Source: Vallitalea sp.
GTDB lineage: Bacteria; Bacillota; Clostridia; Lachnospirales; Vallitaleaceae
Reading direction: 5' to 3'
Assembly: GCA_025210515.1 (NCBI GenBank)
Contig: JAOARM010000025.1
Location: forward strand, 1 to 64,000
DNA length: 64,000 bases
The notes beneath the pieces are model-generated. The model saw only the letters and a program-made list of their open reading frames with translations. It was not told the DNA's origin and ran no database searches. Shown piece after piece: positions 12,419 through 52,800 of the stretch; the first letter of the stretch is position 1, and every line of letters begins with the position of its first letter. Both the position numbers and the translations under genes were made by a program.

Positions 12419-15076
12419 TTATTCTTCATATACTACCCATATATCTCCATCTTCCCCATCACTGTTTGTAGGTTCAGTTGTTGATACATGTATTGCTCTA
12501 CTTTTTTCCTCAGATATAATAGGTTTTCCTTTGTATTTTAACTTTCCTGCATTATCGGATAGCTCATTTAATACATTCACATTACTATGCTCTAATAAGC
12601 TTTTAACTTCTTGATTTAACTTGCTTTTAGCAATAGTTCCATCTTTAATAATAGTACCATCTTGTAATTCTTCATCTTTAATTTCAACTGATTTCATACA
12701 AATAAAATCATACTGTGTTCCATTATCCCACTTAGCACCTGTTCCATCATCAACTTTCTGAATTTTATTTCCATCAACAATGGTGTACTCAGTGTCTTTA
12801 GTTTTAATTATCCCACCTATTGTTACAACTAGAAAATCATTACCTTCATTAAATTCTGGAATGTCAATAGGTATATGATTAGTCTCTGTAGTTAACGTAC
12901 CGCTTTTTGTAAAATACATGACTTTTGAATTGTTAATAGATTTACCTTTATATTTTAAACTACCGTTATCATCGATTAAATTATTTAATACCGTCATATT
13001 TGGATGATTATGTAATTCTGTATGATTATGATTACTTTCTGCTTTATTATTCCAGTTAGATTTTTCTATATCTGTTACAAATCTATGTGTAGCATCTTGT
13101 GTAATCACATCTGCTGAATGACTTAAAGGATGAGTATAGTTATTAGCATTATTTTCAATACCATTTAATTTACTTCTCTCTGTACTAGTCATAATCTTTT
13201 TAGTGGGTGTCTCAGTCATTATATCCATACTATGATTTGATGGATGTATATAATTATTAGCATTGTCTTCTATACCATCAATTTTAGTTTTATCTATAAA
13301 ACTCATCTTACCGTCAAGTACATGTGTCGCAAGTGGTATTTCACTTTCAGATATTTGTCTCCAGTCTGTACCGTCGAATCTATATACTTTATCTTCATTG
13401 TTAACTGATGCCGTCCAACCTTCTTCTGCATCTTTATAAGTTTTGACGAGGTCTTCAAATTTCGCCACTGCCTCTTTCCAATCAAGTTGTTTTACAGCTT
13501 GTGTAATTTTATTTTCAACTTCATTGCGACTATATGTATCGTCCCATTTTGACCTTTCAGCATCTGTGATAAATCTATGTGTAGCATCTGTTTGGATATT
13601 TACTGCGTCATTAGATTTAACTCCTTGGACTATTAATTTATAATTCACTCCATCATCAACCGGTGTAATTCCTACAATTTCTTTCAAAACTAAATATGTA
13701 TTACCCTTATACAATACCTTATTCTGTGCATAGTAAGCTGTATTTGCATTATAATCTTCATACACACTAACTCTTTGATTAAGATTGTCCATTTCAGCTA
13801 TTTTACCATTAGCTTGACCAATATCACCTTGAAGAGTTATATGTTTTTCATTTACAGTAGAAATAGTATTATCTAAATTGGATTTTTTAACTGTAGCTGT
13901 TGATATAGAAGCATCTATTTCGGATTTCTTAGTTGTCGCTATTGATATACTACCATCAAGGTTAGACTTAATTGTATTAGCTTCGATGATTTTATTATTT
14001 ATCTCACCTATTTTTGTATCAGCTTGGCTCATCTTTGAATCAAGTTCAGATTTTTTAATAATAGTATAATTATCAAGATCTTTCTTCTTTGTCCCATTGA
14101 AGGGATTATCATTCGTACCAACATAATCATCTAATTCACTCTTTTTGGTATCAGTATGAGTGTTTAGTTGATTTGTTGTATATGTATCAATTTCACTTTC
14201 TTTTTGAGATTTATATGAATTCAAATCTTCTTTAAGAATGTCTGTACGTTGGCTTAATTGTATTTCTTTGGATGCAACAAAATCATTTATCTCTTTTTTT
14301 ACTGTCCCACTTGCAGGATTATTATCATCACCAATAAAGTCATCTATTTCACTTTTTTTACTCTCAACATGAGTATTTATTTTTGATATAGCTTCGTCTT
14401 TTTTTGTATTCATGAAGGCATCTGCCTTGCCAATTTCATCATGCAGTGAAATATATGAATTATTGGCTTTACCAATTTCTTCTGTCAATTGATTCTTTTT
14501 ATTAATTGCAGTATTTGTTGTACTTTCTAGATCTATTTTGGTAGTCTCAGCAGAATTGATTGACGTATTTAATATTTGATTAGTTTGATTACCTTCTTCA
14601 TTTTTTGTAGTTAATACGCCCTCTAGTCTTTGTCCCTCTGAGACAATATTACCTAAATTTTGTAAATCGGTAGATGCTTTATTAACGTCATCTACTATAT
14701 CTTGAAGATTTGTTACTGACCCATCTACTTCATTAACATGGGTATAGATTCTACTAGCAGGGTACATAATACTACCTCTACTAGAATAATTTATACTTAA
14801 TGTTTTTCCTTCTAGACTCTTATGTAAGAAAATAACACCCAGACCATAATTCACACGAAACTTACTTTCTATAATTTCTGTTTCCGAATCTGTAGGGTCA
14901 ATTTCATTAAGATTTGTAATCTGAACACCATAAAAAGCATCTGGAATTTCCAATAAAGTGATTTTCCCATTAACAACCACATGTGTTTCATTACTAATAG
15001 GTATAGACACCTTGTTGCCTTTATCATCTAGATTCCAAATAATCCTTAATGTCTTATCTACATTCTCAATTCCCAT
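12419..15076 (-). CDS. Long tail-fibre protein
   Basis: 885 residues. Residues ~1-120 resemble the upper-baseplate/fibre attachment domain of Gram-positive phage fibres (BppU-type). Residues ~120-430 are a long coiled-coil stalk with repeated KKSEIDDFIGDDNNP / KKSELDDYVGTNDNP units. A carbohydrate-module-like stretch around 440-480 (YEDYNANTAYYAQNKVLYKG) follows, then several collar-type segments with the motif RFVTDxExSxW and NxxNYxHP. The last ~70 residues end in DSDGEDGDIWVVYEE-like sequence common to phage fibre tails. It is the main F-module fibre candidate, lying right after the radical-SAM cassette. Confidence 0.85.
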   Translation of the reverse strand: MGIENVDKTLRIIWNLDDKGNKVSIPISNETHVVVNGKITLLEIPDAFYGVQITNLNEIDPTDSETEIIESKFRVNYGLGVIFLHKSLEGKTLSINYSSRGSIMYPASRIYTHVNEVDGSVTNLQDIVDDVNKASTDLQNLGNIVSEGQRLEGVLTTKNEEGNQTNQILNTSINSAETTKIDLESTTNTAINKKNQLTEEIGKANNSYISLHDEIGKADAFMNTKKDEAISKINTHVESKKSEIDDFIGDDNNPASGTVKKEINDFVASKEIQLSQRTDILKEDLNSYKSQKESEIDTYTTNQLNTHTDTKKSELDDYVGTNDNPFNGTKKKDLDNYTIIKKSELDSKMSQADTKIGEINNKIIEANTIKSNLDGSISIATTKKSEIDASISTATVKKSNLDNTISTVNEKHITLQGDIGQANGKIAEMDNLNQRVSVYEDYNANTAYYAQNKVLYKGNTYLVLKEIVGITPVDDGVNYKLIVQGVKSNDAVNIQTDATHRFITDAERSKWDDTYSRNEVENKITQAVKQLDWKEAVAKFEDLVKTYKDAEEGWTASVNNEDKVYRFDGTDWRQISESEIPLATHVLDGKMSFIDKTKIDGIEDNANNYIHPSNHSMDIMTETPTKKIMTSTERSKLNGIENNANNYTHPLSHSADVITQDATHRFVTDIEKSNWNNKAESNHNHTELHNHPNMTVLNNLIDDNGSLKYKGKSINNSKVMYFTKSGTLTTETNHIPIDIPEFNEGNDFLVVTIGGIIKTKDTEYTIVDGNKIQKVDDGTGAKWDNGTQYDFICMKSVEIKDEELQDGTIIKDGTIAKSKLNQEVKSLLEHSNVNVLNELSDNAGKLKYKGKPIISEEKSRAIHVSTTEPTNSDGEDGDIWVVYEE

Positions 15077-15311: not shown

Positions 15312-15980
15312 TTATTTAATATAGTTTATTGATGAGATAAAGGGAATAGCATTATAATCTAAATATGTATTGTGTTTTGTCTCCCAATTATCATAGATTT
15401 TTAATAATACTATTTTTTCTCTTTTCTTATTTTCAAAAATATGATAGCCTATAATCAAAATTGTATGATTTGAATAATAATCTTTATGTGAATTACCACT
15501 CAAATTAAGTATTACAGGGTTACTGTTATCAATTTGATTAATAATTGTATTTATATTGTATCCTAACCCTTTCAAATACAGTTGTCTTGACTTACCACCA
15601 TTTGCTATCAATCCTTTATCTTTATAAGCCTTCAATACGTTGTTTATAATATTTTTTATAAATAATGGTATTGTTCCATATTTCCTTGGATTAGATATCC
15701 ATTTGGGATTTACTCCTATATCAATTACATGATTATATATATCTTCAAAATCTAATTTAACCAGATATTCAAATAATGTTGATATACTTGATAATGTACA
15801 ATCTAAGTCGTCTCCCACAGTATCTTGGTCATGAGGTATTATTTCTCCTATAATATGTCGTTGAATAGAGTATTTATCATTTCCCAACTTTTCTTGAATA
15901 TACTGATGTCCGAAATTAATTTTTGATATGTATTTTTTTCTTGGAAACATATTATCTATTATAGTCATAAATTTCATCAT
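15312..15980 (-). CDS. Papain/C39-like cysteine peptidase of the CXXX cassette
   Basis: 222 residues. A possible catalytic triad in the C39/papain order is visible: Cys61 in GDDLDCTLSSIST, His172 in SNHTILIIGYH, and Asp197 (or Asn198) in KIYDNW. The NHTILIIGY and VLLKIYDNW strands are typical of the C-terminal half of such peptidases. There is no ABC-transporter domain and no signal peptide. It starts 9 nt after the CXXX-repeat gene, so it belongs to the same transcript. C39-like peptidases remove leaders from modified peptides; here it could trim the Cys-rich protein or act as a fibre-borne enzyme. Family call is from motif pattern only. Confidence 0.65.
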   Translation of the reverse strand: MMKFMTIIDNMFPRKKYISKINFGHQYIQEKLGNDKYSIQRHIIGEIIPHDQDTVGDDLDCTLSSISTLFEYLVKLDFEDIYNHVIDIGVNPKWISNPRKYGTIPLFIKNIINNVLKAYKDKGLIANGGKSRQLYLKGLGYNINTIINQIDNSNPVILNLSGNSHKDYYSNHTILIIGYHIFENKKREKIVLLKIYDNWETKHNTYLDYNAIPFISSINYIK

Positions 15981-15988
15981 TTTGTCTC

Positions 15989-16987
15989 CTATAAACTGTT
16001 TAATGCATTTTTTAAAGCATGAAATAAACTAGCTATTACATTGTCACCTTTGTTTACATCTGGTGGAACTCCACTACTACCTAATGCTCTTAAATCCCTT
16101 GTCGCTTCATTGAAATAATCTGCTTTGATATTTTGTCCTTTTGAAACAGTTGTATGATCGCCTATTGAATTTTCTTTTTTAAGATATTTAGAAAAATCTA
16201 TGATTTTATCCATAAAACTATTCCATTCAGATGCAGTTAAAGATGTAATAGGGTTCCCACTAGAAAAAGTGAACCCATTAAAATCGGATGGTCTTTTGGA
16301 TACAGATGCTGATTGAGTGGTGCATTCATCCGAACATGAATCTGCACATCTAAAAGTACAACTGTACGTACACGTATATGAACATGAACCTCCACATCCT
16401 TTGCATTCACCTGTGCAACTATTATTACAACCTTCGTTGCAACTATTAGTGCATCCTTCTTTACATCCTTCTTTGCATCCTTCTTTACATCCTTCTTTGC
16501 ATCCTTTTTCACAACCCTCTTTACATCCATTCTTACATCCGTTTTTACATGTTTCAGTACAATTGCTATTACAACCCTTGTTGCAATTATTAGTGCAACC
16601 TTTACATTCCCCAGTACAACTATTATTACATCCTTTAGAACAACTATTACCACAATTTCCTTTACAACCAGTGCTACAATCGTCCTCGCATTGTGTTCCA
16701 CACTTTCCTCTACATGATCCATAACAACTCTTTGTACATAAGTTATAGCACGAGTCCCTACACATCTTGCCACACCCACCAGTACAATTTTTTGAGCATT
16801 TTTTATCACATGTATTTGCACATTCTTCTCTACATGTTGTATAACAACTTTTAAAACACATATAAGCACATGAATCACTACACATTGCACTACACGTTGT
16901 CTTACATCTATTTTTACATCCTGTACTACAACCTACACTACAACCCTCTCTACAAGCATTTTCGCATTCCATACAAGCTACAGGCAT
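15989..16987 (-). CDS. CXXX-repeat Cys-rich protein fused to phage-type domain (candidate radical-SAM substrate)
   Basis: 332 residues in two parts. Residues 5-222 contain 56 cysteines, 52 of 55 intervals being exactly CXXXC; the three exceptions are CXXC at 5-8, 128-131 and 195-198. Filler residues are mostly G, S, K, N, E and T, with a run of KEGC units at about 156-175. Residues ~223-332 have no cysteine and resemble a domain found in clostridial phage proteins (ITSLTASEWNSFMDKI, then KGQNIKADYFNEATRDL, then GDNVIASLFHALKNAL). The start ATG has GGAGGTG upstream. It lies between the radical-SAM and peptidase genes, so it is the obvious substrate; the cross-links themselves are inferred. Confidence 0.85.
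   Translation of the reverse strand: MPVACMECENACREGCSVGCSTGCKNRCKTTCSAMCSDSCAYMCFKSCYTTCREECANTCDKKCSKNCTGGCGKMCRDSCYNLCTKSCYGSCRGKCGTQCEDDCSTGCKGNCGNSCSKGCNNSCTGECKGCTNNCNKGCNSNCTETCKNGCKNGCKEGCEKGCKEGCKEGCKEGCKEGCTNSCNEGCNNSCTGECKGCGGSCSYTCTYSCTFRCADSCSDECTTQSASVSKRPSDFNGFTFSSGNPITSLTASEWNSFMDKIIDFSKYLKKENSIGDHTTVSKGQNIKADYFNEATRDLRALGSSGVPPDVNKGDNVIASLFHALKNALNSL
16451..16506. repeat. Tandem 12/24-bp repeat encoding KEGC units
   Basis: On the plus strand the unit GCATCCTTCTTT alternates with ACATCCTTCTTT, giving a near-perfect 24-bp period inside the Cys-rich gene. Each 12 bp encodes one KEGC (read on the minus strand). Such arrays can change length by replication slippage without breaking the reading frame. 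Confidence 0.85.
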
Positions 16988-16989
16988 TA

Positions 16990-17283
16990 TTACACCTCCA
17001 TTGTAAAAGTTAATTTGTCCTTATCATAAATATAACTATACTTATCGATATTTACATTACTTATACATTCTCTAACCGCTATATCTAATATATATTTGTT
17101 TAATTCAACACTTAAATCACAATATTTATCTACTAATATTTCCATCTGGTCTTTTGAATACTCAAATTGATACTTATTAATAAGAAACATATCTATTAGA
17201 TTTTGTATTGATTTTAATTTGTACGATGTATAGTGTATATACCCAGACTCTTCTTTTGTTAATATAATATTATGTCTTTGCAT
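16990..17283 (-). CDS. Small protein of the radical-SAM cassette
   Basis: 97 residues from the ATG at 17283, three codons after a GTG that opens the frame. No cysteine cluster; one Cys lies mid-protein (VDKYCDLSVE) and one near DIAVRECISNV. Predicted mixed helical, ending in a KLTFTMEV strand. It overlaps or abuts its neighbours on both sides, so it is co-transcribed between the 116-residue partner and the CXXX-repeat gene. It may serve in substrate recognition, but I recognise no family. Confidence 0.65.
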   Translation of the reverse strand: MQRHNIILTKEESGYIHYTSYKLKSIQNLIDMFLINKYQFEYSKDQMEILVDKYCDLSVELNKYILDIAVRECISNVNIDKYSYIYDKDKLTFTMEV

Positions 17284-17285
17284 AA

Positions 17286-17636
17286 TTAACACCCATTTTC
17301 ACATGCAGTACATTCTTTTTGCTTAAATAGAAATATTACTTTTCTTTGAGTGTCATATCTATAGATATCACTATATTCACTTGCATACTCTACCCCAACA
17401 TATTTATTTAGTAGATTTCCCCATAATATTTTATGTTCTCTCATTGATTTCACATAAAACTCCATGATGGTTTTTATCATTTTGATATCCCCATCTTTTT
17501 TAGCTTCATCAAGCATTTCAATAGACCAATCTATATTAACGATTGTTCCATATAGCTCCTTATGGTCTTCCTCATTCATAGTAATCATGTTTGGTACACC
17601 TTTTATATGCATTACATTTTCTAAATTCTTTTTCAT
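17286..17636 (-). CDS. CXXX-repeat modification system partner protein
   Basis: 116 residues from the ATG at 17636, preceded by GGAGG at 8 nt; the open frame extends to 17660 without a ribosome binding site. It is mostly helical and charged, with a distinctive C-terminus ECTACENGC. That CxxCENxC cluster repeats the opening of the Cys-rich protein (CMECENAC), so the two share a short cysteine signature. Small helical partners of about this size accompany radical-SAM CXXX-repeat maturases; the assignment is by context and size. A role in presenting the substrate is inference. Confidence 0.65.
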   Translation of the reverse strand: MKKNLENVMHIKGVPNMITMNEEDHKELYGTIVNIDWSIEMLDEAKKDGDIKMIKTIMEFYVKSMREHKILWGNLLNKYVGVEYASEYSDIYRYDTQRKVIFLFKQKECTACENGC

Positions 17637-17656
17637 TTCTCTTTCCTCCGTTTTAT

Positions 17657-19000
17657 TCAATGTTGTTGTGTTAATAACAACATATTGTATTCTTTCTCAT
17701 CTATTATCTCTAATGCCCATTCTTCTGGTATATGCATTTCAAACTTCTTATCTATATTTAATTTTTTATAAAGCTTGTTCCAATAATATACATTAGCCAT
17801 TACTTGAGCCTTATGCATATCACAATGAAAAGTTGCTCTTTTATTTGCTGTGCCAAAAACATCATAGTTATATGCACTACACCAAGCACACCCTGTAGCA
17901 ATTGGGCAATTAAAACATTCATCTGTGGATTGACTTCTTCTTGTTATACATTGTAATTCTGCTAATTGTTTATTTTCTTGTTCTGTTTCTATACCATCGT
18001 ATATATTACCAATACACATTTCTTTTCTATCTTTATTACTTAAACTATACTTCATATATCTCAAGCAAGGATACGTTCTTCCATCATGCCCTATTGCAAG
18101 CATATCTCCTGTACCACCACAATAGTTACCATTCTCTTCTGGAGACATAGGCATCCCATATTGCTCTTTAAATAAAGTAGTATGTTTATGTTTGAATAAC
18201 TCTCTATCAATAGTTATATCAGCTAATTCTTTAAGTTTATAATAGAATTTAGTAGCATCACTCTTACACCATACATCTTCAAACACTACATTTGCAGGAA
18301 CAGAAAAAACTCCTAAATCCCATAAATGTGTTACACTATCTACTAAATAATCTAAATTTTGAGGTGCTAGAGTTACTTTCGTCGTAGGGTCTTGACGATC
18401 TTTAATCCAAACTTTTACACTTTTAAGCACATCATCATAACTACCTGTACCATCCTTATAAATTCTGCATGAATCATGAAGTTTTTTATTTCCATCAATA
18501 GTGATACCTACATCAACTCTTCCATCATTCTTTTTCATAAAATTTTGGAACTCATCAGTTAAATATAGTGTTCCATTACTAGACATACTAATCATATAAT
18601 TATATGCCCAAGGATGTTCTAATTCTATGGCTCGCATCTTAAAATAATCCATAAAATAATCCATGACTTCTATATTTAACATAGGCTCTCCACCTATAAA
18701 ATCTAATATAACGCATTTATGTTTTTCTAAATCTATATACCCATTATGTTTACTTGGGTTCAACAGAAACTCAACTATATCTTTGGCTTTTTCTTTAGTT
18801 AGAAATACTTTGTTTTTCCCATGTTGATAGCAATATGTACACCTTAAATTGCACTCTTCTGTGAGAACAATAGTCACATTTTTTACACATAATTCTGTAA
18901 AATGCTCACCTGTATAATTGCTATACATTTCACCAAAACTAGCTCCAAAAGATGTACTATCGGCATCCGTCATATATAAATTATTTTTAGGTTTTTTCAT
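17657..19000 (-). CDS. Radical SAM/SPASM peptide maturase (CXXX-repeat type)
   Basis: 447 residues. The CX3CX2C motif for the SAM-binding [4Fe-4S] cluster is at Cys50, Cys54 and Cys57 (EECNLRCTYC), followed by GGEPM at 103-107. The C-terminal SPASM domain has cysteines at 294, 312, 329, 351, 362, 365, 371, 374 and 393, in the CX2CX5CX2C-type arrangement that binds auxiliary clusters. Such enzymes install thioether or C-C cross-links on ribosomal peptides. The immediately downstream Cys-rich CXXX protein is the probable substrate. The gene has GGAGG 9 nt upstream and follows the tail-spike gene by 63 nt in one operon. The closest described group is the CXXX-repeat maturase family; the exact bond type is unknown. 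Confidence 0.9.
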   Translation of the reverse strand: MKKPKNNLYMTDADSTSFGASFGEMYSNYTGEHFTELCVKNVTIVLTEECNLRCTYCYQHGKNKVFLTKEKAKDIVEFLLNPSKHNGYIDLEKHKCVILDFIGGEPMLNIEVMDYFMDYFKMRAIELEHPWAYNYMISMSSNGTLYLTDEFQNFMKKNDGRVDVGITIDGNKKLHDSCRIYKDGTGSYDDVLKSVKVWIKDRQDPTTKVTLAPQNLDYLVDSVTHLWDLGVFSVPANVVFEDVWCKSDATKFYYKLKELADITIDRELFKHKHTTLFKEQYGMPMSPEENGNYCGGTGDMLAIGHDGRTYPCLRYMKYSLSNKDRKEMCIGNIYDGIETEQENKQLAELQCITRRSQSTDECFNCPIATGCAWCSAYNYDVFGTANKRATFHCDMHKAQVMANVYYWNKLYKKLNIDKKFEMHIPEEWALEIIDEKEYNMLLLTQQH

Positions 19001-19063: not shown

Positions 19064-21871
19064 TTATCCAAATACTGCTACAGCATTTATATTTGTCCCA
19101 GTGATTTTACCTCTAAACTCTACATCGCCATAGAATCTACTATCACCTTGAAAATGTATCATTTTATCTTGTGCTACTTCCAAAGATATACCATCGGCTG
19201 ATTTGATTTTTATGGGATGTCTGTTTAAACTTTTAATATAAATTCTTTCCTTACTTTCGTTAGAGGATCCTGCTCCATCGTCATCATAAGTGAATTCTCC
19301 TACTTGGTTACCCTTTACCCATAACTGTAAGTTTCCATCATTACTTAGAGAGAATCCATGTTTTATAGTGTTTGATTCATAACTTATGATACCTTTGTGG
19401 TCAATCTCTATTCTGTTCCCATCTTTTATAGTTTTGATTGAACCACCAATGATTTGCGGGGACATTATAGATACACTATTTATACTTGTACTTCTAATAT
19501 AAGATGGTATAGTGGGAATACTAGGTTTGTCTGTTAATTCATTAAAAGATATATTTCCATTTATATTAATATTATTCCAATACAACGTTCCACTCTCTAA
19601 ATCAAATACTCTAGTACCTTTACTATTTCTTATCTCTCCACCCATTAACTGTAAATTTTGTGCCATAATATTCCCACTAGCGCTATCTACCTTGAATTTA
19701 TCTATCCATCTTGAGCCATCATAATACTCTATTTTAATCCCTTCAGAAGCATTTAAAGTTGTTTTTATTGTTTTACTTATATCATCATCATTAGTTCTTA
19801 CTACTACACCATTTTGTGAATTGATTTTAACACCATTATAGGATTTATTATCCATGAGTAAGTTTTCTCCCGATAGTTTATCTGTAGGTAATCCATCTAT
19901 AATATTAAGGCTTGCTCCACGTATAGTTACCCCATCTGCATTAACTTTAAATGAACCACTAGTATTCTCTATTGATAGATTGCTTCCAGCTATTACCTTG
20001 CCATATATAGCTTCTCCAATTACCCCCTCTGAGCTTATCGCCGTACCAGATGTATTCCAACCATCATTAGTAAAAGCTATCAAGTCACCAATTAACTTGA
20101 CTTGTCTATCTATATCTTTAGTATCTGTTAATAGTATTCCTCGTTCATCAATTACAACTTCTTGATTAATGCCTGCAAATGCTCTTTTCTTGGATAGATC
20201 TAATAATCCATCTAGATAGTCTGAGAATTTACTTCTCTCTTTGTCATATAGTCCATATTTGGTTTTTTCCATGTTTATAGTTGTGCTTGTGGAAATACTT
20301 TCTTTTAGTAAATCTTTTAGATAGATGCTTGGATCATCCAATGAACTTTTGTTAGAAAAGTTCATATCAATTTCATTATCTGTCTCTGAATATGTATACT
20401 CAACTAATCTAGCATCGAAAGTCAAATTCAGTGTATCCGCTTCTATCTTAACTATATCTCCAAGTCCTGTAGTCACATATTCCCAATCTTCACTACTATC
20501 TATACAACGTAAATAGTTAACAACGTCTACAGAGAATTTTATTGATGGTTGAGCTAACCTAAGTAAAATATTTTGTCCTTCTTCATATAAATCTTTTTCA
20601 TTAAAATAAGAACTATCTGCCCACGTTTTTTCTCTGGTGAACATATCAAGTTCTTTTATCTGTTCTTCTGTAAGATTGTTCTCTATTTTCATTAGTTTCT
20701 TTAAATCTGATACTTCTTTCTTCTTAGCATCTATACTAGACTGTTTGGTATTAACTTGCTTTTGTTTTGAAGTTATTTTATTTTTAATACTTGTTTCTTG
20801 GCTTTTTAGAACTGATAAATCATTTTCGCCTTGTCTTATCAAAGCATCTATTTGTAACTGTATACCTTTTAACTGTTCTTTTAATACATTTAATCCTTTA
20901 TTATCATCCTCTGGACAATATAATAATTTATTCATCTCATCCTGAAGATTAGATAGTTCTTTATATTTGATTTTCAACATATCTTCTTTACTTTTTATAA
21001 GTTCTTTATAATCCGTTAGCGCATTACATAAGCCATCTGACATATAGTCAGAATGCCCTGTTATGGTATATGTATCATCTAGATTTTTTTTTCTACTAAA
21101 TCCAGCCATGTAATAAGCATATGTTTCTATATAAGACTGCCCTGTTGGATTCAGCCCATTAATTGTCATGTTATCTTTTCCATAGCATTTTAACCTTGTT
21201 ACAACTTCTTGAAAGTTAGGTTTTATATCAATTGAATTAGCATAATTTCTTTCGCTAAGTACAAATCCTTTATTCTTCCCTATATTTTCTAAATTTCTTA
21301 TATTGATTGTCCTATTAACGGTATCAAATTCAAATATACATAGATATTTTTTCTGTATGTCGATAAGAAATTCAAGTATTGTCTGTTCAGATACTTCCAT
21401 TGTTCTTTCAATTAACATTAACTCTGGTTCTGTTATACCTAATTTCCAACTAGGAAATTGTGATATAACATAGCTCATCATATAAGATAGGGGTTGCTGT
21501 CCTTCTTTCCAACTTCTTACAAGTTTGTTGGAAAATATATATTCATATGAGTACGCAACTACATTTTTAATAGCAGTTTTTTTTCTTATAGTTTCTTCGC
21601 ATTCTTTAATGATAAAATATTGCTTATTTCCATTGAACTCTACTAATAATACAAAATCACCTTTAATTAAATCATACTCATCATTACTTTTATCTATCTG
21701 AAATCTAATTTCATCAACTGAGCTAAATCTTTTAGTAATCTCTTTATTGTATGCTCCTGTAATTCCTTGTATTGGTGTACGGTTATAATCTGGCTTACAT
21801 ACTGTAATGTTAAGTTGTATAGGTTCATTTTTCTTATAGGATTTTATTAAATCAAAAGGGATATACTGCAT
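19064..21871 (-). CDS. Siphovirus-type tail spike/endopeptidase-like protein (Tal)
   Basis: 935 residues. Residues ~1-350 look like the prophage tail-associated (Tal/gp18-like) hub domain that follows Dit in siphophages. A coiled-coil hinge around 285-395 (KEDMLKIKYKELSNLQDEMN) follows. The C-terminal ~400 residues are beta-helical fibre-like repeats ending in a DSRFYGDVEFRGKITGTNINAV segment, like other tail-spike tips. Its order after Dit and before the cross-linking cassette is the normal F-tail order with the cassette inserted. Peptidase activity is not visible from the sequence, so the endopeptidase label is by family only. Confidence 0.85.
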   Translation of the reverse strand: MQYIPFDLIKSYKKNEPIQLNITVCKPDYNRTPIQGITGAYNKEITKRFSSVDEIRFQIDKSNDEYDLIKGDFVLLVEFNGNKQYFIIKECEETIRKKTAIKNVVAYSYEYIFSNKLVRSWKEGQQPLSYMMSYVISQFPSWKLGITEPELMLIERTMEVSEQTILEFLIDIQKKYLCIFEFDTVNRTINIRNLENIGKNKGFVLSERNYANSIDIKPNFQEVVTRLKCYGKDNMTINGLNPTGQSYIETYAYYMAGFSRKKNLDDTYTITGHSDYMSDGLCNALTDYKELIKSKEDMLKIKYKELSNLQDEMNKLLYCPEDDNKGLNVLKEQLKGIQLQIDALIRQGENDLSVLKSQETSIKNKITSKQKQVNTKQSSIDAKKKEVSDLKKLMKIENNLTEEQIKELDMFTREKTWADSSYFNEKDLYEEGQNILLRLAQPSIKFSVDVVNYLRCIDSSEDWEYVTTGLGDIVKIEADTLNLTFDARLVEYTYSETDNEIDMNFSNKSSLDDPSIYLKDLLKESISTSTTINMEKTKYGLYDKERSKFSDYLDGLLDLSKKRAFAGINQEVVIDERGILLTDTKDIDRQVKLIGDLIAFTNDGWNTSGTAISSEGVIGEAIYGKVIAGSNLSIENTSGSFKVNADGVTIRGASLNIIDGLPTDKLSGENLLMDNKSYNGVKINSQNGVVVRTNDDDISKTIKTTLNASEGIKIEYYDGSRWIDKFKVDSASGNIMAQNLQLMGGEIRNSKGTRVFDLESGTLYWNNININGNISFNELTDKPSIPTIPSYIRSTSINSVSIMSPQIIGGSIKTIKDGNRIEIDHKGIISYESNTIKHGFSLSNDGNLQLWVKGNQVGEFTYDDDGAGSSNESKERIYIKSLNRHPIKIKSADGISLEVAQDKMIHFQGDSRFYGDVEFRGKITGTNINAVAVFG

Positions 21872-21893: not shown

Positions 21894-22679
21894 CTATATA
21901 GCTATCGGGTACTGCATCTTATATGAGAGTGTACAATCTCTATAAACGCTAATGTTATTAATACCATATTTTAACCTAAACCAATTCATATTAAATTTAT
22001 CTAATCTATAATTATCTGGATACAGTTGATTCCCTATTACTTTCTTAGTATGATTGTTAATATATATTGTTTCTTTATTGTTTAGTCCAACGAATGAAAA
22101 AGGTCTATCCTTATCTTTGTCACCAATTATTTTAATTTCACTACTTGTTGTTATAATTTCCATCTCTGGATAATACCAATTTAATACATTACTTTTATTT
22201 TCTAAACTAAATGTATATGGATTATTATCGTTTGTTCCTGATATTACCTTTGTTACTATAGTAGTTGGTGCCCATGCCCATGGAGCATCTGTTCTAAAAT
22301 TAAGTGTAATGTATCCTTCATCATTTCCATTAAGAACTTTAGTGGATTTGTCTATGCATATTACTTTGTATATTACTTGTGGACATTCTTCAGATTTTAA
22401 TTCTTGATAATAAGGAGCAAATATTAATTTTGCAAAATCAACCTTAGTCTTATAATCCCATTTTCTATTATTGCTTCTTGCAAATTTCATAGAAAATGAT
22501 ATAGGTTGTCTATCTACTCCATAAAAATATGGTTTATCTGTATATTCATTTTTTTCTTCTATTATAGACTGAGAAATTCCAAAATGACTTTCCATCATTC
22601 CTCCACCTATTTCAACTGCTATTAATCCAAATTCATCATATAAATCTACTTCTCCTATATGTATTTTTCCTGTAAACAT
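21894..22679 (-). CDS. Distal tail protein (Dit-like)
   Basis: 261 residues beginning with the MFTGKIHIGEVDLYDEFGL region and containing PISFSMKFARSNNRKWDYKT followed by an aromatic WAW motif (TDAPWAWAPTT), both typical of siphovirus Dit/phage-tail-family proteins. Dit forms the hexameric ring joining tail tube to the hub. It lies between the tape-measure and Tal genes, as in siphophages. Confidence 0.85.
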   Translation of the reverse strand: MFTGKIHIGEVDLYDEFGLIAVEIGGGMMESHFGISQSIIEEKNEYTDKPYFYGVDRQPISFSMKFARSNNRKWDYKTKVDFAKLIFAPYYQELKSEECPQVIYKVICIDKSTKVLNGNDEGYITLNFRTDAPWAWAPTTIVTKVISGTNDNNPYTFSLENKSNVLNWYYPEMEIITTSSEIKIIGDKDKDRPFSFVGLNNKETIYINNHTKKVIGNQLYPDNYRLDKFNMNWFRLKYGINNISVYRDCTLSYKMQYPIAI

Positions 22680-27204: not shown

Positions 27205-27927
27205 TTATTTAATATATGTAAACTCTGCCATATCTCCATTTTCATCTGCAAGAATATCAAATTTTGCTGAAAGTGTAGCAACATCTTTACTTGAGAATGA
27301 AATTGAAAATGCACCTTGTGGTCTACAGTTTGGTATTCTAAGTTGTACAAATTGGTCTGTACCCATTTCTGATCTTAACATAGTATCACCGTAGATAGCG
27401 TAAGCATCAGCATACTTGTCGTTAGATACTAAGAATGATTTTGAACCTGATTGCTCAACCATATAATATACAACAATTTTAGTATCATCAGCTGCTGTTA
27501 CAGTAAGATCCTTATCTTTTAATGCACCTGGTTTCACTTCATCTTTATGGCTTCTATTATCTGCATCTAATGTAAATACTGCAATTGAACCAGCTTTTGG
27601 TGCTTGATTTAATGTGACTTTATTACCTGATACTGTTAATACTTCTCTTTTAGCAATTTCTGAAGCTGAATTATCATCTTCTGTTGCTCCTAATAAAATT
27701 GATAACCATTTTAGTTCAAATACTTGTAACTCCATTGAGAAAGTACCATTTTTATTGGAATCAAAAGCGACTTTATTAACTCCTTTCGCTGTTGCCATTA
27801 CACGATCTGCTCCAAATTCTAATGTAGTAGAATTGGCATAATCTGTAAATAATACAGGTACTTTTGTTCCATCTGCTTTTCTTCTTAATAATTGTACATT
27901 TGTTGCGTCTTTAATTGCATAATTCAT
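27205..27927 (-). CDS. Major tail tube protein (F-type module)
   Basis: 240 residues from the ATG at 27927, which has AAGGAG upstream; the open frame extends to 27951. Beta-rich, with an N-terminal MNYAIKDATNVQLLRRKADG, an Ig-like middle and a C-terminal ASFDILADENGDMAEFTYI-type strand, in keeping with siphovirus tube proteins. It precedes the chaperone and tape measure and should polymerise into the non-contractile tube. Family assignment rests on position, size and composition; I see no sheath gene in this module. Confidence 0.7.
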   Translation of the reverse strand: MNYAIKDATNVQLLRRKADGTKVPVLFTDYANSTTLEFGADRVMATAKGVNKVAFDSNKNGTFSMELQVFELKWLSILLGATEDDNSASEIAKREVLTVSGNKVTLNQAPKAGSIAVFTLDADNRSHKDEVKPGALKDKDLTVTAADDTKIVVYYMVEQSGSKSFLVSNDKYADAYAIYGDTMLRSEMGTDQFVQLRIPNCRPQGAFSISFSSKDVATLSAKFDILADENGDMAEFTYIK

Positions 27928-27943
27928 TATTAAACAACTCCTT

Positions 27944-28663
27944 CTATTCATTATTATTTTTTATAGAAATTGTCCAATGTTGGACAGATTCCTCAACCTT
28001 GAAATTTGGTGATGTTCTATACATTAGAAACTCTCCATAGTTATATTTTGAAATAATAGTTTCAAAGCATTTCATTAGTTCAAAATACGTCATGTTTTTA
28101 ATTTGTTCTTTAGTTATAAAACTTGTACCACCATGTTTGACAACATTAATAATATCTGAGAGTAAAAACCTATTTTTTTCTTCTTGTTCTCTTCTGTGTT
28201 TGGTTATTTTGTAATATATTTCTTTTTGCTTTTCTGACATTTTATCAGTTCTCTTATAGTCGGATTTCACTCTTTGCCTATTAAACATTTTTAGGACAAT
28301 ATCTACGAACTCATCATAATTATTTTTATGTAACCTTCCTTGTTTACCTACTGTTACAAACCATACTTCTTGTAGAAAATATACTTTCTGATTTGTAAAA
28401 AATTGTATAGCTTCAATTAACGTTTTCTGGTAATCTTTGTCTGGTAAAGAGAAGATAACATCAAAGTTAGTGATACTATCTAAATCCTTTGTTTCTGCAT
28501 TAATAAGAAGTTCTTTAGATATAGATATTGCACCTATATATTTATTAAGCTTTTCTTCTCCTATTTCCACAATATCTTTTATTAGGGGCTGGTATATTAA
28601 TCCCATATCTTTTATATATATTGGCTCTTGTAGTAAAAGCTTTAGATACACATCTTCCTTCAT
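27944..28663 (-). CDS. Tail-module protein upstream of tube gene
   Basis: 239 residues. The N-terminal region contains EPIYIKDMGLIYQPLIKDIVEIG, a pattern seen in small clostridial phage tail proteins annotated as Gp15- or tail-assembly-like, and the C-terminal half is helical and basic. It overlaps the extended frame of the tube gene by a few bases and is the first gene of the F-tail operon after the hairpin at 28712-28737. Likely tail completion or chaperone; function not certain. Confidence 0.55.
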   Translation of the reverse strand: MKEDVYLKLLLQEPIYIKDMGLIYQPLIKDIVEIGEEKLNKYIGAISISKELLINAETKDLDSITNFDVIFSLPDKDYQKTLIEAIQFFTNQKVYFLQEVWFVTVGKQGRLHKNNYDEFVDIVLKMFNRQRVKSDYKRTDKMSEKQKEIYYKITKHRREQEEKNRFLLSDIINVVKHGGTSFITKEQIKNMTYFELMKCFETIISKYNYGEFLMYRTSPNFKVEESVQHWTISIKNNNE

Positions 28664-28777: not shown

Positions 28778-29797
28778 TTACTTTTTTCTGCATTGTTTGC
28801 AATATGCTTGTAATCCATCTGTACGAGATTTGCACTTTCCAAAATAATGTGAGAGCTTTGTTTGTTGACATTTTGGACATTTTTTATATGTTCCTTTTAT
28901 ATAATTAAGATTAATAAAGTCAATGTATTGTTTTCTATTTTCATTAATTATTTTCGTAATAATATTATTTATAGTCCTATTAACATTGGGTTGCTTCATA
29001 TGAAGCTTAATAGCAATAGTTTGTTCTGTATAATCTTTACTTCTATACATATTAAGTATTGTTAACTCTCTTTCATTAAGATTAGCTTTATTAATTAAAT
29101 CATCTAAGTCTTTAACCATTATGCCAATGTCTGTGAAGATAGAAGATTTTTTTACTTTTAATAGAGCTTTTAATACTTGTTTATCATTATAATCAACGTA
29201 GTTATAATTTGTATTATTGCTACTTTCACTTGCTTTCTTTAAATAAATAGTTCCTTTTAATATGTCTTTTGCTATTAGTTGATCTTGTCTACATAAACCA
29301 ATATGTTTAGCGTATAAATATATTTCTTTCATGTTATTCGTGGTATTTTTTATGTATTTTATCTTATCTCTTAATTGATCTATATATCTTTCATATTCAG
29401 CTAAGCAACTTAGATCTTCATTTTGTAAATCACTGTTATATATTTTTTGCTTAGCTTGAACTCTATAATTATTGTTATTGCGTAGTAAGAAATCTATCAC
29501 TTCACTTGTAGTATCTTCAGCAAATTGTTCATTTTTACTTTTCACTCCTTCTATTGGTTGTTCTTTTTTTAATTTCATATCTAATGCAACGTCTGTATAG
29601 AATCTATATTTTGTTTTCTTTACTAGTGGCTTGGAATCTGGTGAGAATAATATGTAATCTGCCATCTTCTGTAATATGAAGTCTTTAAGTGTTATTTTCT
29701 CTTGCTGTGCAATATTAATTATGTTATTTATATGTTTTATTCTTTCTTGTTGGGTTGATATTGTGTAATCTAACTGGTCTAGTATTAAGTCGTTCAT
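28778..29797 (-). CDS. Sigma-like HTH protein with C-terminal zinc ribbon
   Basis: 339 residues. Residues ~1-200 are helical with no recognised domain. Residues ~240-290 contain a sigma-70 region-4/LuxR-like HTH (LNERELTILNMYRSKDYTEQ followed by KLHMKQPNVNRTINNIITK). The last ~35 residues are a treble-clef zinc ribbon with four cysteines, CPKC...CKQC, of the type found at the ends of phage regulators and recombination endonuclease VII-like proteins. It is expressed from its own late promoter copy (29875-29909) and is followed by a terminator hairpin. It probably controls the F-type tail operon, as an alternative sigma or antitermination factor. Confidence 0.7.
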   Translation of the reverse strand: MNDLILDQLDYTISTQQERIKHINNIINIAQQEKITLKDFILQKMADYILFSPDSKPLVKKTKYRFYTDVALDMKLKKEQPIEGVKSKNEQFAEDTTSEVIDFLLRNNNNYRVQAKQKIYNSDLQNEDLSCLAEYERYIDQLRDKIKYIKNTTNNMKEIYLYAKHIGLCRQDQLIAKDILKGTIYLKKASESSNNTNYNYVDYNDKQVLKALLKVKKSSIFTDIGIMVKDLDDLINKANLNERELTILNMYRSKDYTEQTIAIKLHMKQPNVNRTINNIITKIINENRKQYIDFINLNYIKGTYKKCPKCQQTKLSHYFGKCKSRTDGLQAYCKQCRKK

Positions 29798-49837: not shown

Positions 49838-52800
49838 TTAATAATTCTTAGTTAACCCAATGAAATTATTAATAAAATCAATTGCTTCTTCTTTACTCAT
49901 TTCATTAAAATCTTTTCCAGATAAATTATTGTATAGCTCCATCATCAAGTTTAACATTTCTTCTGATATGCTGCATTCATTAACAATGTGGTTGTTCTTC
50001 TCATCAGTAACTCCATACATTATATATCCTAATTCACTTTTATCATTCTTTTTAGATGGACTATATATTTCTACTTCACTAATACTATTCCATTGACTTA
50101 CTGTATTACCATGACCATTAATTCTTATATATCTGGCTTTCGTAGGATCAATTTCAAATGTCTCAAAATCAGATGTTAATCCAGAACTTTTAACTTTACT
50201 TAATAGTTTAGTATAGTTTTTTCCATCTATAGATACTTCAACATCAAAAATTGTTTGTCTTAAATCTCCACTAAAGAAAGCTATAGAAAGATAATTTACT
50301 AACTTCTGCTCACCTAAGTCAAATTTAATCCATTGTTCTCCTTTTGCAGACCATCTTGTATTCAAGTCACCGTCTACAGTATTATCTGCTTTATGTCCAT
50401 CATCACCACTTGAAGTAACCATATCTTTATTAATAACATATTGGATTGCATTCTGTGGTTTACCTATTAAAGGTAATAAATTAAAACTTACATAATATGT
50501 TGCTTCATTACCATTACCATCGTTAACATTTATAGTTGCTATACCTGGTATTTCACTAGCTTGTGTGATAGATACATTATGATTACTTTCAACGCTAACA
50601 ACTGGAACCTTCTTAGTTCCGAAAGGTAAATTTATGTTAAATACTTTATTTGTATCTTGGAAATCACTTAATGATTCTCCATCTATATTGATTCCTTTTA
50701 ACTTTGGTGTATTAATATTTCCATCTTCAATTGTCCAATCTTTTAAAGGTGTTACTACTGGCTCGTCTTCTGGGATAGATTCTATATCAAGTAATGGTAC
50801 CATCCAAATAGATATAGTTTCTTCCACTACGTCATCCATATATAAAGCTAACTTTCTAATACCGTTATTAGATTTTTGTTTATCTGGATATGGATTAGGA
50901 GATGTAGGAAGAGGTTTGGCTTCCATCTCTTTAAAAGTAGCTCCATTATTATTTGAAATAAGTTTTACATATAGTTTCTTGCCTTCTTTTGTTAATAAAG
51001 CTGCTTTTCCATTTTCAATAATTTCAATGTCAGCTCGAGTATGCATAAACCAATATATTTCAGAAGGTTTTTTCAATAAAAGTTCGTCTTGTATAAGGAT
51101 TTGTGAACGATTATTAAATAATTTCATACCTCGTTTTGCACTTTTTGCATCTTTTGTATATGCATCACTTAAATCAAGTATAGAATATGCTCCTTTTGGT
51201 TTAGATTCAGTATCAATAATGCAAGATGCTGCATTTACGTCTTGTTGTAAAACTGGATTTTCTTTTGGATTAATTACAAGTGTATTATGTCCTTCTGGTT
51301 TCTTTCTATAATAAGTCCAACGTTGGTACTTTCCATCCCAGAAACCTGGTAAACTATAATTATCTGTTCCTAGATCCATTGCCCATCTTACACCTAATGC
51401 ATCAAAAACAAATGTACCACTATCTAAGTCTGCATGACTCTTCATTTGACTATTATAGCCTTTCATTGCAACAAAGAGTGCATTAGCATCTGCCCAATTA
51501 CTTCTAAATGCTGATGTTTCTACTACTTTAAAAGTTTTATCTAAAGTATTAGGTTTCTTATCTACTAATCCGTTTTTATAGAATAGAAGAGAAAGTCCTG
51601 TTTGTGTATTCTTTCTTCTATTAAAATCTGATATGATAAATGCATATTCTGGCTTATTATAATGAGATGCATACCACATTGCTTCTGGACGTGCTCCTCC
51701 AAGACCATTACCATCTGCGAAATTAAATGTACCCAATTCACCCTGTAAATAAACTGGGAAAGCCCCTGAATTCTTAAATCCTTCTAGTTGTGAAAGTCCA
51801 TAATCAATTCCAAGAGAATTGTTAAGTGAAGCTATTAAATATGTTAAATATTGTCCTCCATATCCCCAATAAATAGGACCTTCTGGCCACGCTCCATCTT
51901 TTGAATAATATCTTATTGCAAGTTGAATATCTTTTAACGCTCTTTCTAAAACTTTTCCTTCAAGCTCTTGTGCATCTTCTAGTATTGCCATTGCTGAAAA
52001 AGCCATAGTACCATTAACAACGAAGTTAATATTATTGGTTCTTTCTCCAGCCTTTGTTTTCATATATTCTTTTAACGCTTTGTTTTTAATTGCATTCTCT
52101 ATAGTATTTCTTTGTTGATCATTTAGATAGTCATAAATCATGTCATATCCAAAAGCTACATAAAATGATGTTTCTGCACAACCTAGCATACTGTTTGATA
52201 TACCCCAATCTTTATAATTGGCAACGGCTTCTAATTCTTCCCAAACGAATTCTGCATACTTTGGATCATTTGTTAATTGATATAATACTGCAGCATCTAC
52301 AAGTTTATTCCTTGTTTTATACGGAGATTTTTCATCTTCTGGTGTTGGCTCCATATCAATCATAGAATCTACTTTTGTTTTAATACTATTATATACCTTG
52401 TTGATATAATCATCATTTTGTAAATTAGATTTTAATTCATTTATTCTTGATTTAGTTACTAATAATCTAGGATGTTCGTTGCTTAATCCATGGCTTGCAA
52501 AATCATTTTTAATATTCTCTATTAATGGTTGCACAAACACCATTATTTTTTCTTTAATAACTCCACCATTATTGTCACTAATAGTTACTTCAAAGCTATC
52601 ATATCCTATGTAATCTTTATTAGGTGTATATGTAAAAGTTCCAATAGATTCTAAACTAACATTACCATTAGTTGCATTGGCATCTAGAGTGTATGTAATA
52701 TTATCTTTATCTATATCTTTTACTTTAATACTATCATTAATAGTTTCTTGATTAGTTGTGACAAAATGCTCAATTTGGTAAATAGGATCGTCATTTACAG

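What the first reader, a model, noticed from the sequence alone, without database searches (positions are those of the whole stretch)
15312..19000. Radical-SAM CXXX-repeat peptide-modification cassette embedded in a tail operon
Seen: a SPASM radical SAM enzyme (CX3CX2C at 50-57 and nine C-terminal cysteines), two small helper genes, a protein with 56 cysteines in 52 CXXXC intervals, and a peptidase with a Cys-His-Asp pattern, all tightly spaced between the tail-spike (Tal) and long-fibre genes. Known: CXXX-repeat maturases form thioether or carbon cross-links in RiPP precursors. Inference: this particle carries an appendage rigidified or armed by enzymatic cross-linking, so far not described for phage tails to my knowledge.
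Basis: partly seen in the sequence, partly recalled or inferred. Interest (0 to 1): 0.95.

Follow-up and report, generated by a model that had tools for sequence, protein, structure and literature searches.

The report
Enzyme-stitched cysteine ladders on phage tails
Genes for a protein with a cysteine at every fourth residue and for a radical-SAM enzyme sit inside the tail operon of a phage-like element in a bacterium, and relatives of the pair recur beside tail genes of many different phages; the enzyme is predicted to cross-link the protein into a stiff rod that is likely part of the tail, which would be a new way of building a virus appendage.

Summary
Between Tal (PF06605) and a long fibre-like gene lie a radical-SAM enzyme (TIGR04115, 420 bits, cut-off 350), two small helpers, a 332-aa protein with 56 Cys (52 of 55 intervals CXXX) and a C39-like peptidase. 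It is not a lone insertion: of 98 phage-side enzymes in a tree of relatives, 91 have a CXXX frame on the same strand (86 within 1 kb) and 53 lie near tail-labelled genes; in the host-RiPP clade 0 of 35 do. Seven of seven giant-phage records examined (SPN3US, CR5 and others) have two tandem CXXX ORFs between a tail/virion gene region and two radical-SAM genes; 11 of these 14 ORFs are not annotated in frame. Cys are kept in 776 of 823 aligned columns, other residues in 59%. Best reading: a phage-borne maturation cassette that cross-links (thioether, predicted) a tail appendage. The chemistry and presence in particles are untested; 45 of 98 loci lack a labelled tail gene in the stretch held. Searches of a held open-access library found no description. 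The window element looks headless (tailocin-like).

The parts
17657..19000 (-). Radical-SAM/SPASM maturase, 447 aa (TIGR04115)
   Evidence: TIGR04115 420.1 bits, cut-off 350; CX3CX2C and nine C-terminal Cys; closest solved chain by profile is 5wgg_A, E 1.8e-36
17286..17660 (-). Helper 1, 124 aa, TTG start, ends in CTACENGC
   Evidence: profile-profile match to the 109-aa phage helper family c1 (83% probability); c1 matches the cluster c4 at 96%, one scanned member of which hits TIGR04116; AlphaFold model with two long helices, pLDDT 87
16990..17292 (-). Helper 2, 100 aa, GTG start, no family
   Evidence: ORF position; only the window and its IMG/VR copy hit; weak profile match to helper family c18 (18%)
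15989..16987 (-). CXXX-repeat protein, 332 aa, the predicted substrate
   Evidence: 56 Cys, 52 of 55 intervals of 4; TIGR04117 30.6 bits, below cut-off 50
16322..16975 (-). CXXX array (residues 5-222)
   Evidence: Cys positions
15992..16321 (-). C-terminal Cys-free domain of the CXXX protein (residues 223-332), three helices in the model
   Evidence: phrog_37329 E 1.9e-13; 41% identical in L093; tblastn match E 2e-4 to an array-free frame in phage record MT835607; L262 E 1.1e-4; model pLDDT 87; best BFVD hits are two phage proteins
15312..15980 (-). C39-like cysteine peptidase, 222 aa, candidate triad C61-H172-D197
   Evidence: PF13529 23.0 bits, cut-off 24; the residues are also present in the one other distinct relative found in the loci, L155
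15119..15298 (-). Small 59-aa ORF between cassette and fibre
   Evidence: phrog_18977 E 1.2e-8, function unknown
19064..21871 (-). Tal (tail-associated protein), 935 aa
   Evidence: PF06605 67.3 bits, phrog_6211 minor tail protein
21894..22679 (-). Dit (distal tail protein), 261 aa
   Evidence: PF20753 36.5 bits, phrog_33
12419..15076 (-). Long fibre-like protein, 885 aa
   Evidence: phrog_11315 and phrog_13589 (function unknown), weak phrog_7049 tail fibre E 0.027

Best explanation
This is most likely a peptide-maturation cassette built into a phage-type tail operon: its radical-SAM enzyme, with one or two small helper proteins, is predicted to join the cysteines of the neighbouring CXXX protein to nearby residues, and the resulting stiff cross-linked rod is likely carried at the tail tip or fibre. 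Shown here: the enzyme's family, the regular Cys array, the tight co-orientation, the repeated association with tail genes, the split from the host-RiPP branch, better conservation of Cys than of other residues, and sharing of the window protein's end domain with an array-free phage-record protein. Inferred: that the enzyme acts on this array (from adjacency and from TIGR04115's stated target), that the link is a thioether (from the nearest families, PapB and SCIFF maturases, and the nearest solved chain 5wgg), and that the product sits in the particle (from gene position and the shared domain). The most likely use is a protease- and reduction-resistant spacer or scaffold that holds receptor-binding parts away from the tail.
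For: TIGR04115 over cut-off. Of 98 phage-side enzymes in the tree, 91 have a CXXX frame (8 or more CXXX intervals), 91 of 91 on the same strand, 86 of 91 within 1 kb, median 337 nt; with the 9 distinct enzymes left out of the tree as too short, the count is 99 of 107, 98 of 99 same strand. Tail-labelled neighbours: 53 of 98 (49 without the clusters whose Pfam label is DUF5048 or DUF2612; 28 by Baseplate_J, Gp48 or sheath-initiator clusters alone) against 0 of 35 in the RiPP clade. Of 10 hand-picked neighbours from 10 loci without a label, 5 hit tail PHROGs. Tree: one branch with support 98 holds 29 of 29 loci with the TIGR04116-type helper and 0 of 53 tail loci. Helper cluster c1 resembles the TIGR04116-type cluster (96%). 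Seven of seven giant-phage records examined have two CXXX ORFs upstream of two radical-SAM genes; nearby SPN3US gp168 is a tail protein similar to a phiKZ baseplate-periphery protein (PMC5105663, passages). Cys kept in 776 of 823 columns, other residues in 2376 of 4051, and 317 of the 776 kept Cys use the other codon (22 pairs). End domain also in an array-free frame (1 Cys in 464 aa) of phage record MT835607, E 2e-4.
Against: No mass spectrum, no particle. 45 of 98 phage-side loci have no tail-labelled neighbour in the stretch held; each cluster's label rests on one scanned member; of the 10 hand-picked neighbours without a label, 5 gave no tail hit. 7 of 98 loci show no CXXX frame, several on short contigs. 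The domain common to other phages' CXXX proteins was found only with arrays (106 of 106 hits), so it could be an enzyme-docking region rather than a tail anchor, and the window's domain resembles it only weakly (26%) or not (1%). The window's domain has no PDB match at E 0.001; helper 1's model has none either and shows long helices, not an RRE-like pattern. No X residue of CXXX is fixed as an obvious acceptor. A blind CXXX DNA scan of viral contigs gave mostly 12-nt repeats; of 11 non-tandem frames 5 had the enzyme within the stretch held. Campylobacter phages CP220 and CPt10 and faecal records MT835472 and MT835702, all with radical-SAM hits, have no CXXX array in the stretch examined. One faecal 'phage' record (MT837480) falls in the RiPP clade.
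Confidence: 0.65

Rival explanations
1. The cassette is cargo: it makes a secreted or cell-associated RiPP (bacteriocin, signal or exclusion factor) from a phage genome and is not part of the tail.
For: TIGR04115 relatives on the host side sit with a TIGR04116-type helper and often with a transporter-like cluster (c5; called so by eye, not scanned). No particle data exist.
Against: In the lists, c5 appears in RiPP-clade loci and in L091 and L092 (enzyme pieces too short for the tree), not in the tail-labelled ones. Arrays are longer (median 26 CXXX intervals, against 14 in the 18 RiPP-clade loci that have 8 or more). Placement near fibre or baseplate genes recurs in siphovirus-type, contractile and giant phages.
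Confidence: 0.17
2. The Cys array is a tail part, but it works by binding metal or iron-sulfur clusters or by a disulfide ladder, and the radical-SAM enzyme makes some other change.
For: No fixed acceptor residue in CXXX units; dense Cys arrays could bind metals (general knowledge).
Against: The enzyme's nearest families after TIGR04115 are the PapB ranthipeptide maturase (192 bits) and the thioether-forming SCIFF maturase (115 bits), and the nearest solved chain by profile is 5wgg (recalled as the SCIFF maturase CteB). Enzyme and array occur together in 91 of 98 phage-side loci.
Confidence: 0.13
3. The array is a sequence artefact: expanding 12-nt DNA repeats read as CXXX beside an unrelated enzyme.
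For: The blind DNA scan shows that 12-nt repeats do make chance CXXX frames; parts of the window array are flagged as 12/24-nt repeats.
Against: Cys are kept far better than other residues and with codon changes, although alignment scoring favours Cys; linkage to one enzyme family.
Confidence: 0.02

Closest known systems
CXXX-repeat peptide modification systems of bacteria (NCBIfam TIGR04115 maturase, TIGR04116 helper, TIGR04117/TIGR04114 targets)
   Same: Same maturase family over its cut-off; CXXX array; small helper linked to the TIGR04116 type by an indirect profile comparison
   Different: Host-side targets with 12 or more intervals are short here (86-193 aa) with other gene neighbours; the window target is 332 aa with an extra domain, scores below the TIGR04117 cut-off and sits in a tail operon; the enzyme falls outside the RiPP branch
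PapB/freyrasin and SCIFF ranthipeptide maturases
   Same: Nearest enzyme families after TIGR04115 (192 and 115 bits); radical-SAM plus SPASM-type Cys
   Different: Well below their cut-offs (340, 425); target is a 332-aa protein, not a short peptide; no conserved acidic acceptor in the CXXX units
Tail-fibre and tail-tip proteins of Caudoviricetes and tailocins (coiled-coil, glycine-rich, collagen-like, FN3 fibres)
   Same: Same place in the operon; end domain shared with an array-free repeat protein of a phage record
   Different: The rod would be made by enzymatic Cys cross-linking
Giant phages of the SPN3US/phiEaH2/CR5 group
   Same: Two radical-SAM genes downstream of CXXX ORFs, near a tail gene
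   Different: Distant enzyme (about 23-26% identity); two short arrays (about 130-150 aa frames) per phage; helpers not compared there

Membership tests
TIGR04115 CXXX-repeat radical-SAM maturase | Score over NCBIfam's curated cut-off (350 bits) | tested here: met
   420.1 bits, residues 40-406
Radical-SAM/SPASM enzymes | CX3CX2C motif and C-terminal auxiliary-cluster Cys | tested here: met
   C50, C54, C57 conserved at 90% or more; C294, C312, C362, C365, C371, C374, C393 invariant in 29 sequences; Pfam SPASM itself 20.5 bits, just under 21.5
TIGR04117 CXXX target protein | Score over curated cut-off (50 bits) | tested here: not met
   30.6 bits
TIGR04116 CXXX modification system helper | Helper matches TIGR04116 | tested here: inconclusive
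   No direct hit; indirect profile link through cluster c1, 83% and 96%
Ranthipeptides | Non-alpha thioether from Cys to another residue | not testable with these tools
   Needs mass spectrometry
Peptidase C39-like (PF13529) | Score over gathering cut-off and catalytic Cys/His/Asp | tested here: inconclusive
   23.0 of 24 bits; residues present in the one other distinct relative
Phage tail structural protein | Gene lies in a tail operon | tested here: met
   Between Tal and a fibre-like gene, same strand
Phage tail structural protein | Carries a domain known from tail proteins | tested here: inconclusive
   Domain shared with phage proteins whose own role is not established (phrog_37329, MT835607 frame, two BFVD entries)
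Phage tail structural protein | Present in purified particles | not testable with these tools
   No proteomics at hand; the main-text passages searched for SPN3US do not name gp163-gp167, and supplementary tables could not be opened
Tailocin (headless tail element) | Tail genes without terminase, portal or capsid genes | tested here: inconclusive
   No such family among the window proteins scanned; several small ORFs not scanned; one gene (27205-27951) hits phrog_2729, labelled head and packaging

The most novel reading that the evidence does not exclude
Many tailed phages and tailocins, from clostridial siphophage-type tails to giant Salmonella phages, wear tail rods made of cysteine ladders that a dedicated phage-borne radical-SAM enzyme stitches together: a virus structural protein matured by RiPP chemistry, overlooked because the arrays are missed or misread in annotation and modified beyond standard proteomics.
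Probability: 0.55. Interest if true: 0.93.

Novelty: new variant of a known kind. Interest (0 to 1): 0.86.

Why it matters
If true, enzymatic cross-linking would join coiled coils, collagen-like repeats and beta-helices as a way to build phage fibres, and RiPP maturases would have a structural role. It makes a testable prediction in phages already in culture (SPN3US, CR5, phiEaH2), offers a reason for the radical-SAM genes noted in giant phages, and points to modular protein rods (up to 104 CXXX intervals in L043) for study.

Tried and rejected
Chance or DNA-repeat origin: rejected on Cys conservation with codon changes and linkage counts. The idea that helper 1 is an RRE (PqqD-like) leader binder: not supported by its model. 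Search for homologues of the window's end domain found none at E 0.001; for helper 1 only itself. Acceptor residue from the X1-X3 make-up: none fixed. The window's own Dit, Tal and TMP profiles hit 3, 6 and 3 loci, so neighbours were clustered instead. Campylobacter phages as further cases: no CXXX array in the stretch. Literature: searches gave 0 papers; some searches gave listings (20 of 25, 15 of 25 and 10 of 37 shown) with no title or abstract start describing this. Passages only were seen of PMC2853527, PMC6591296, PMC6143709, PMC8326336, PMC5105663, PMC5694885 and PMC9723712; in PMC10052503 a term search found nothing. PMC9723712 notes Cys-rich tail spikes and a virus with 15 radical-SAM enzymes in methane-cycling systems without linking them.
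Full report
What is there. The minus-strand order is TMP (26509-22709), Dit (22679-21894), Tal (21871-19064), radical-SAM enzyme (19000-17657), helper 1 (17660-17286), helper 2 (17292-16990), CXXX protein (16987-15989), C39-like peptidase (15980-15312), a 59-aa ORF, and an 885-aa fibre-like protein. The enzyme is TIGR04115 over its cut-off. The CXXX protein has 56 Cys; 52 of 55 intervals are CXXXC and three are CXXC. Its last 110 residues have no Cys.

The same pairing elsewhere. One scan of genome contigs and one of viral contigs with an alignment of 29 relatives gave 80 loci each; the viral scan confirmed 146 and kept 80. With phage records L010 and L011 (L012 and L088 left out) there are 142 distinct enzyme sequences, 133 of them long enough for the tree. 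Clustering neighbour genes gave a 109-aa helper (c1) in 58 loci and, in 29 loci, a cluster (c4) whose scanned member hits TIGR04116. Scanned members of common upstream clusters hit Baseplate_J, Mu Gp48, sheath initiator, DUF5048, DUF2612, and tail-fibre, tail or baseplate PHROGs. I counted the two DUF clusters as tail from recall; without them 49 instead of 53 of the 98 phage-side tree loci are tail-labelled, and 28 by the three Pfam-named clusters alone. In the RiPP clade it is 0 of 35. No c4 helper lies on the phage side and no c1 helper in the RiPP clade. Over all 107 non-RiPP distinct enzymes the tail count is 54, but this set holds nine enzymes too short for the tree, some of which (L091, L092) have RiPP-like neighbours. 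Of 10 hand-picked neighbours from loci without a label, 5 hit tail PHROGs, 1 a minor head label, 4 nothing or unknown function only.

Tree. With 135 rows, a branch with SH-aLRT 98 separates 35 rows (29 with the c4 helper, 6 unlabelled) from all 53 tail-labelled rows. The method was quick, with no bootstrap; long branches (L134, the giant phages) are placed unsurely; near-copies are among the rows. MT837480, a faecal record of the phages collection, falls in the RiPP clade.

Array anatomy. Leaving out loci with the c4 helper, 109 distinct CXXX proteins with at least 12 intervals were found: 67 have 70 or more residues before the array, 22 after it, 20 neither. Domains on the two sides are related to each other (hhalign 96%); the window's domain is weakly like the first (26%, collinear) and not like the second (1%). 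A profile of the first hit 106 frames, all with arrays, among 13,642 frames of the loci held: it may serve the enzyme as well as the tail. The window type instead is found in L093, L262 and, by tblastn at E 2e-4, in an array-free 464-aa frame (1 Cys) of MT835607 whose repeats look like FN3 by eye (the profile already held that frame). The model of the window domain, made with relatives, has three helices at pLDDT 87; its best BFVD matches are two phage proteins (E 1.3e-4 and 1.5e-3) and no PDB entry fits at E 0.001. Across 22 aligned pairs (some loci used more than once), 776 of 823 Cys columns are kept and 2376 of 4051 others; in the eight giant-phage pairs 164 of 164 are kept. Alignment scoring favours Cys matches, so the contrast is somewhat inflated.

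Giant phages. In SPN3US, CR5, phiEaH2, Phobos, Kwan, pSal-SNUABM-04 and Machina (7 of 7 examined) two tandem CXXX ORFs follow a 1.2-kb gene (called virion structural in six, hypothetical in pSal-SNUABM-04) and precede, after one or two small genes, two radical-SAM genes. Of the 14 ORFs, 3 are annotated in frame (two in Machina, one in pSal-SNUABM-04) and 11 are not; SPN3US_0166 is called in another frame. The published SPN3US work calls nearby gp168 a tail protein similar to a phiKZ protein at the baseplate periphery (PMC5105663, passages). Their enzymes are about 23-26% identical to the window's, so this may be a separate recruitment.

The window element. A contractile tail module (tail tube PF09393, sheath phrog_279, YqbQ-like, Baseplate_J-type wedge phrog_6, Gp48) lies at about 42-33 kb, then a sigma-factor-like gene, then the siphovirus-type module with the cassette; spore-germination genes (GerA, permease, GerAC) lie at 43-47 kb. 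No terminase, portal or capsid family was seen among the proteins scanned, so this looks like a pair of tailocins, comparable to R- and F-pyocins (recalled). An identical enzyme lies in an IMG/VR contig (L009). In the order, 4 of 196 genomes have an over-cut-off TIGR04115, and each has a CXXX frame beside one such gene; a second, partial one in G157 was not examined. The same-genus genome G079 has a contig of the same length and CXXX frame as the Vallitalea sp. McD1.25 record (L063), which suggests that the window's host is a Vallitalea relative; there the cassette sits in a contractile locus.

How it likely works. Established knowledge (recalled): SPASM radical-SAM maturases use SAM and auxiliary clusters to make links such as thioethers from Cys. 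Nearest families to the window's enzyme are PapB and SCIFF maturases, nearest solved chain 5wgg. Inference: helper-assisted modification of many Cys on one long protein during particle assembly gives a chain of small rings, hence a stiff, protease-resistant rod; the end domain fixes it to the tail tip or fibre; the C39-like protein could trim it or act on cell wall. None of these steps was tested.

Novelty. Searches of the held open-access library found no paper on CXXX arrays or TIGR04115 with phage tails (0 papers; none by the titles and abstract starts shown, some lists capped). Subscription papers and preprints are not held, so absence from print is not proven.

Noticed in passing
window 5341-42339: Two tail modules in tandem, one contractile and one siphovirus-type, with a sigma-factor-like gene (28778-29797) between them and no head or packaging genes recognised except one phrog_2729 label: looks like a double tailocin in a clostridial genome.
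   Followed up: partly
L292:6076-6889, L291:6163-6974, L295-L299: Giant phages carry two CXXX ORFs each; 11 of 14 are not annotated in frame, and SPN3US_0166 is called in another frame over one of them.
   Followed up: partly
L291:6990-7199: CR5_156 (69 aa) resembles the start of the CXXX ORFs (same kind of N-terminus and CNGSCSW) but stops without an array; similar-sized genes sit at the same place in other giant phages.
   Followed up: no
L164:2967-8631, L136:2243-8653: Runs of several CXXX proteins (six and five with at least 12 intervals) before one radical-SAM gene.
   Followed up: no
L191:5644-7035: A CXXX protein whose N-terminal part looks by eye like a discoidin-type binding domain, 30 nt from the enzyme.
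   Followed up: no
L020, L022, L035, L128, L129, L137: Pairs of a short CXXX protein and a longer CXXX protein that lacks a flanking domain, as if one served both.
   Followed up: no
L227:6861-9725: A 955-aa frame with 51 CXXX intervals and a long array-free N-terminal part, cut by the end of the held stretch; no enzyme seen there.
   Followed up: no
P0098, P0120: One enzyme relative carries PF01079 (Hint, intein-like) inserted near the cluster motif; another has a long C-terminal extension.
   Followed up: no
L300 (CP220), L301 (CPt10): Campylobacter phages have radical-SAM genes within a few kb of baseplate genes but no CXXX array in the stretch examined.
   Followed up: partly
window 49838-55303: An 1821-aa protein with a stretch matching Ig-domain and major-tail-protein PHROGs, beyond the germination genes.
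   Followed up: no
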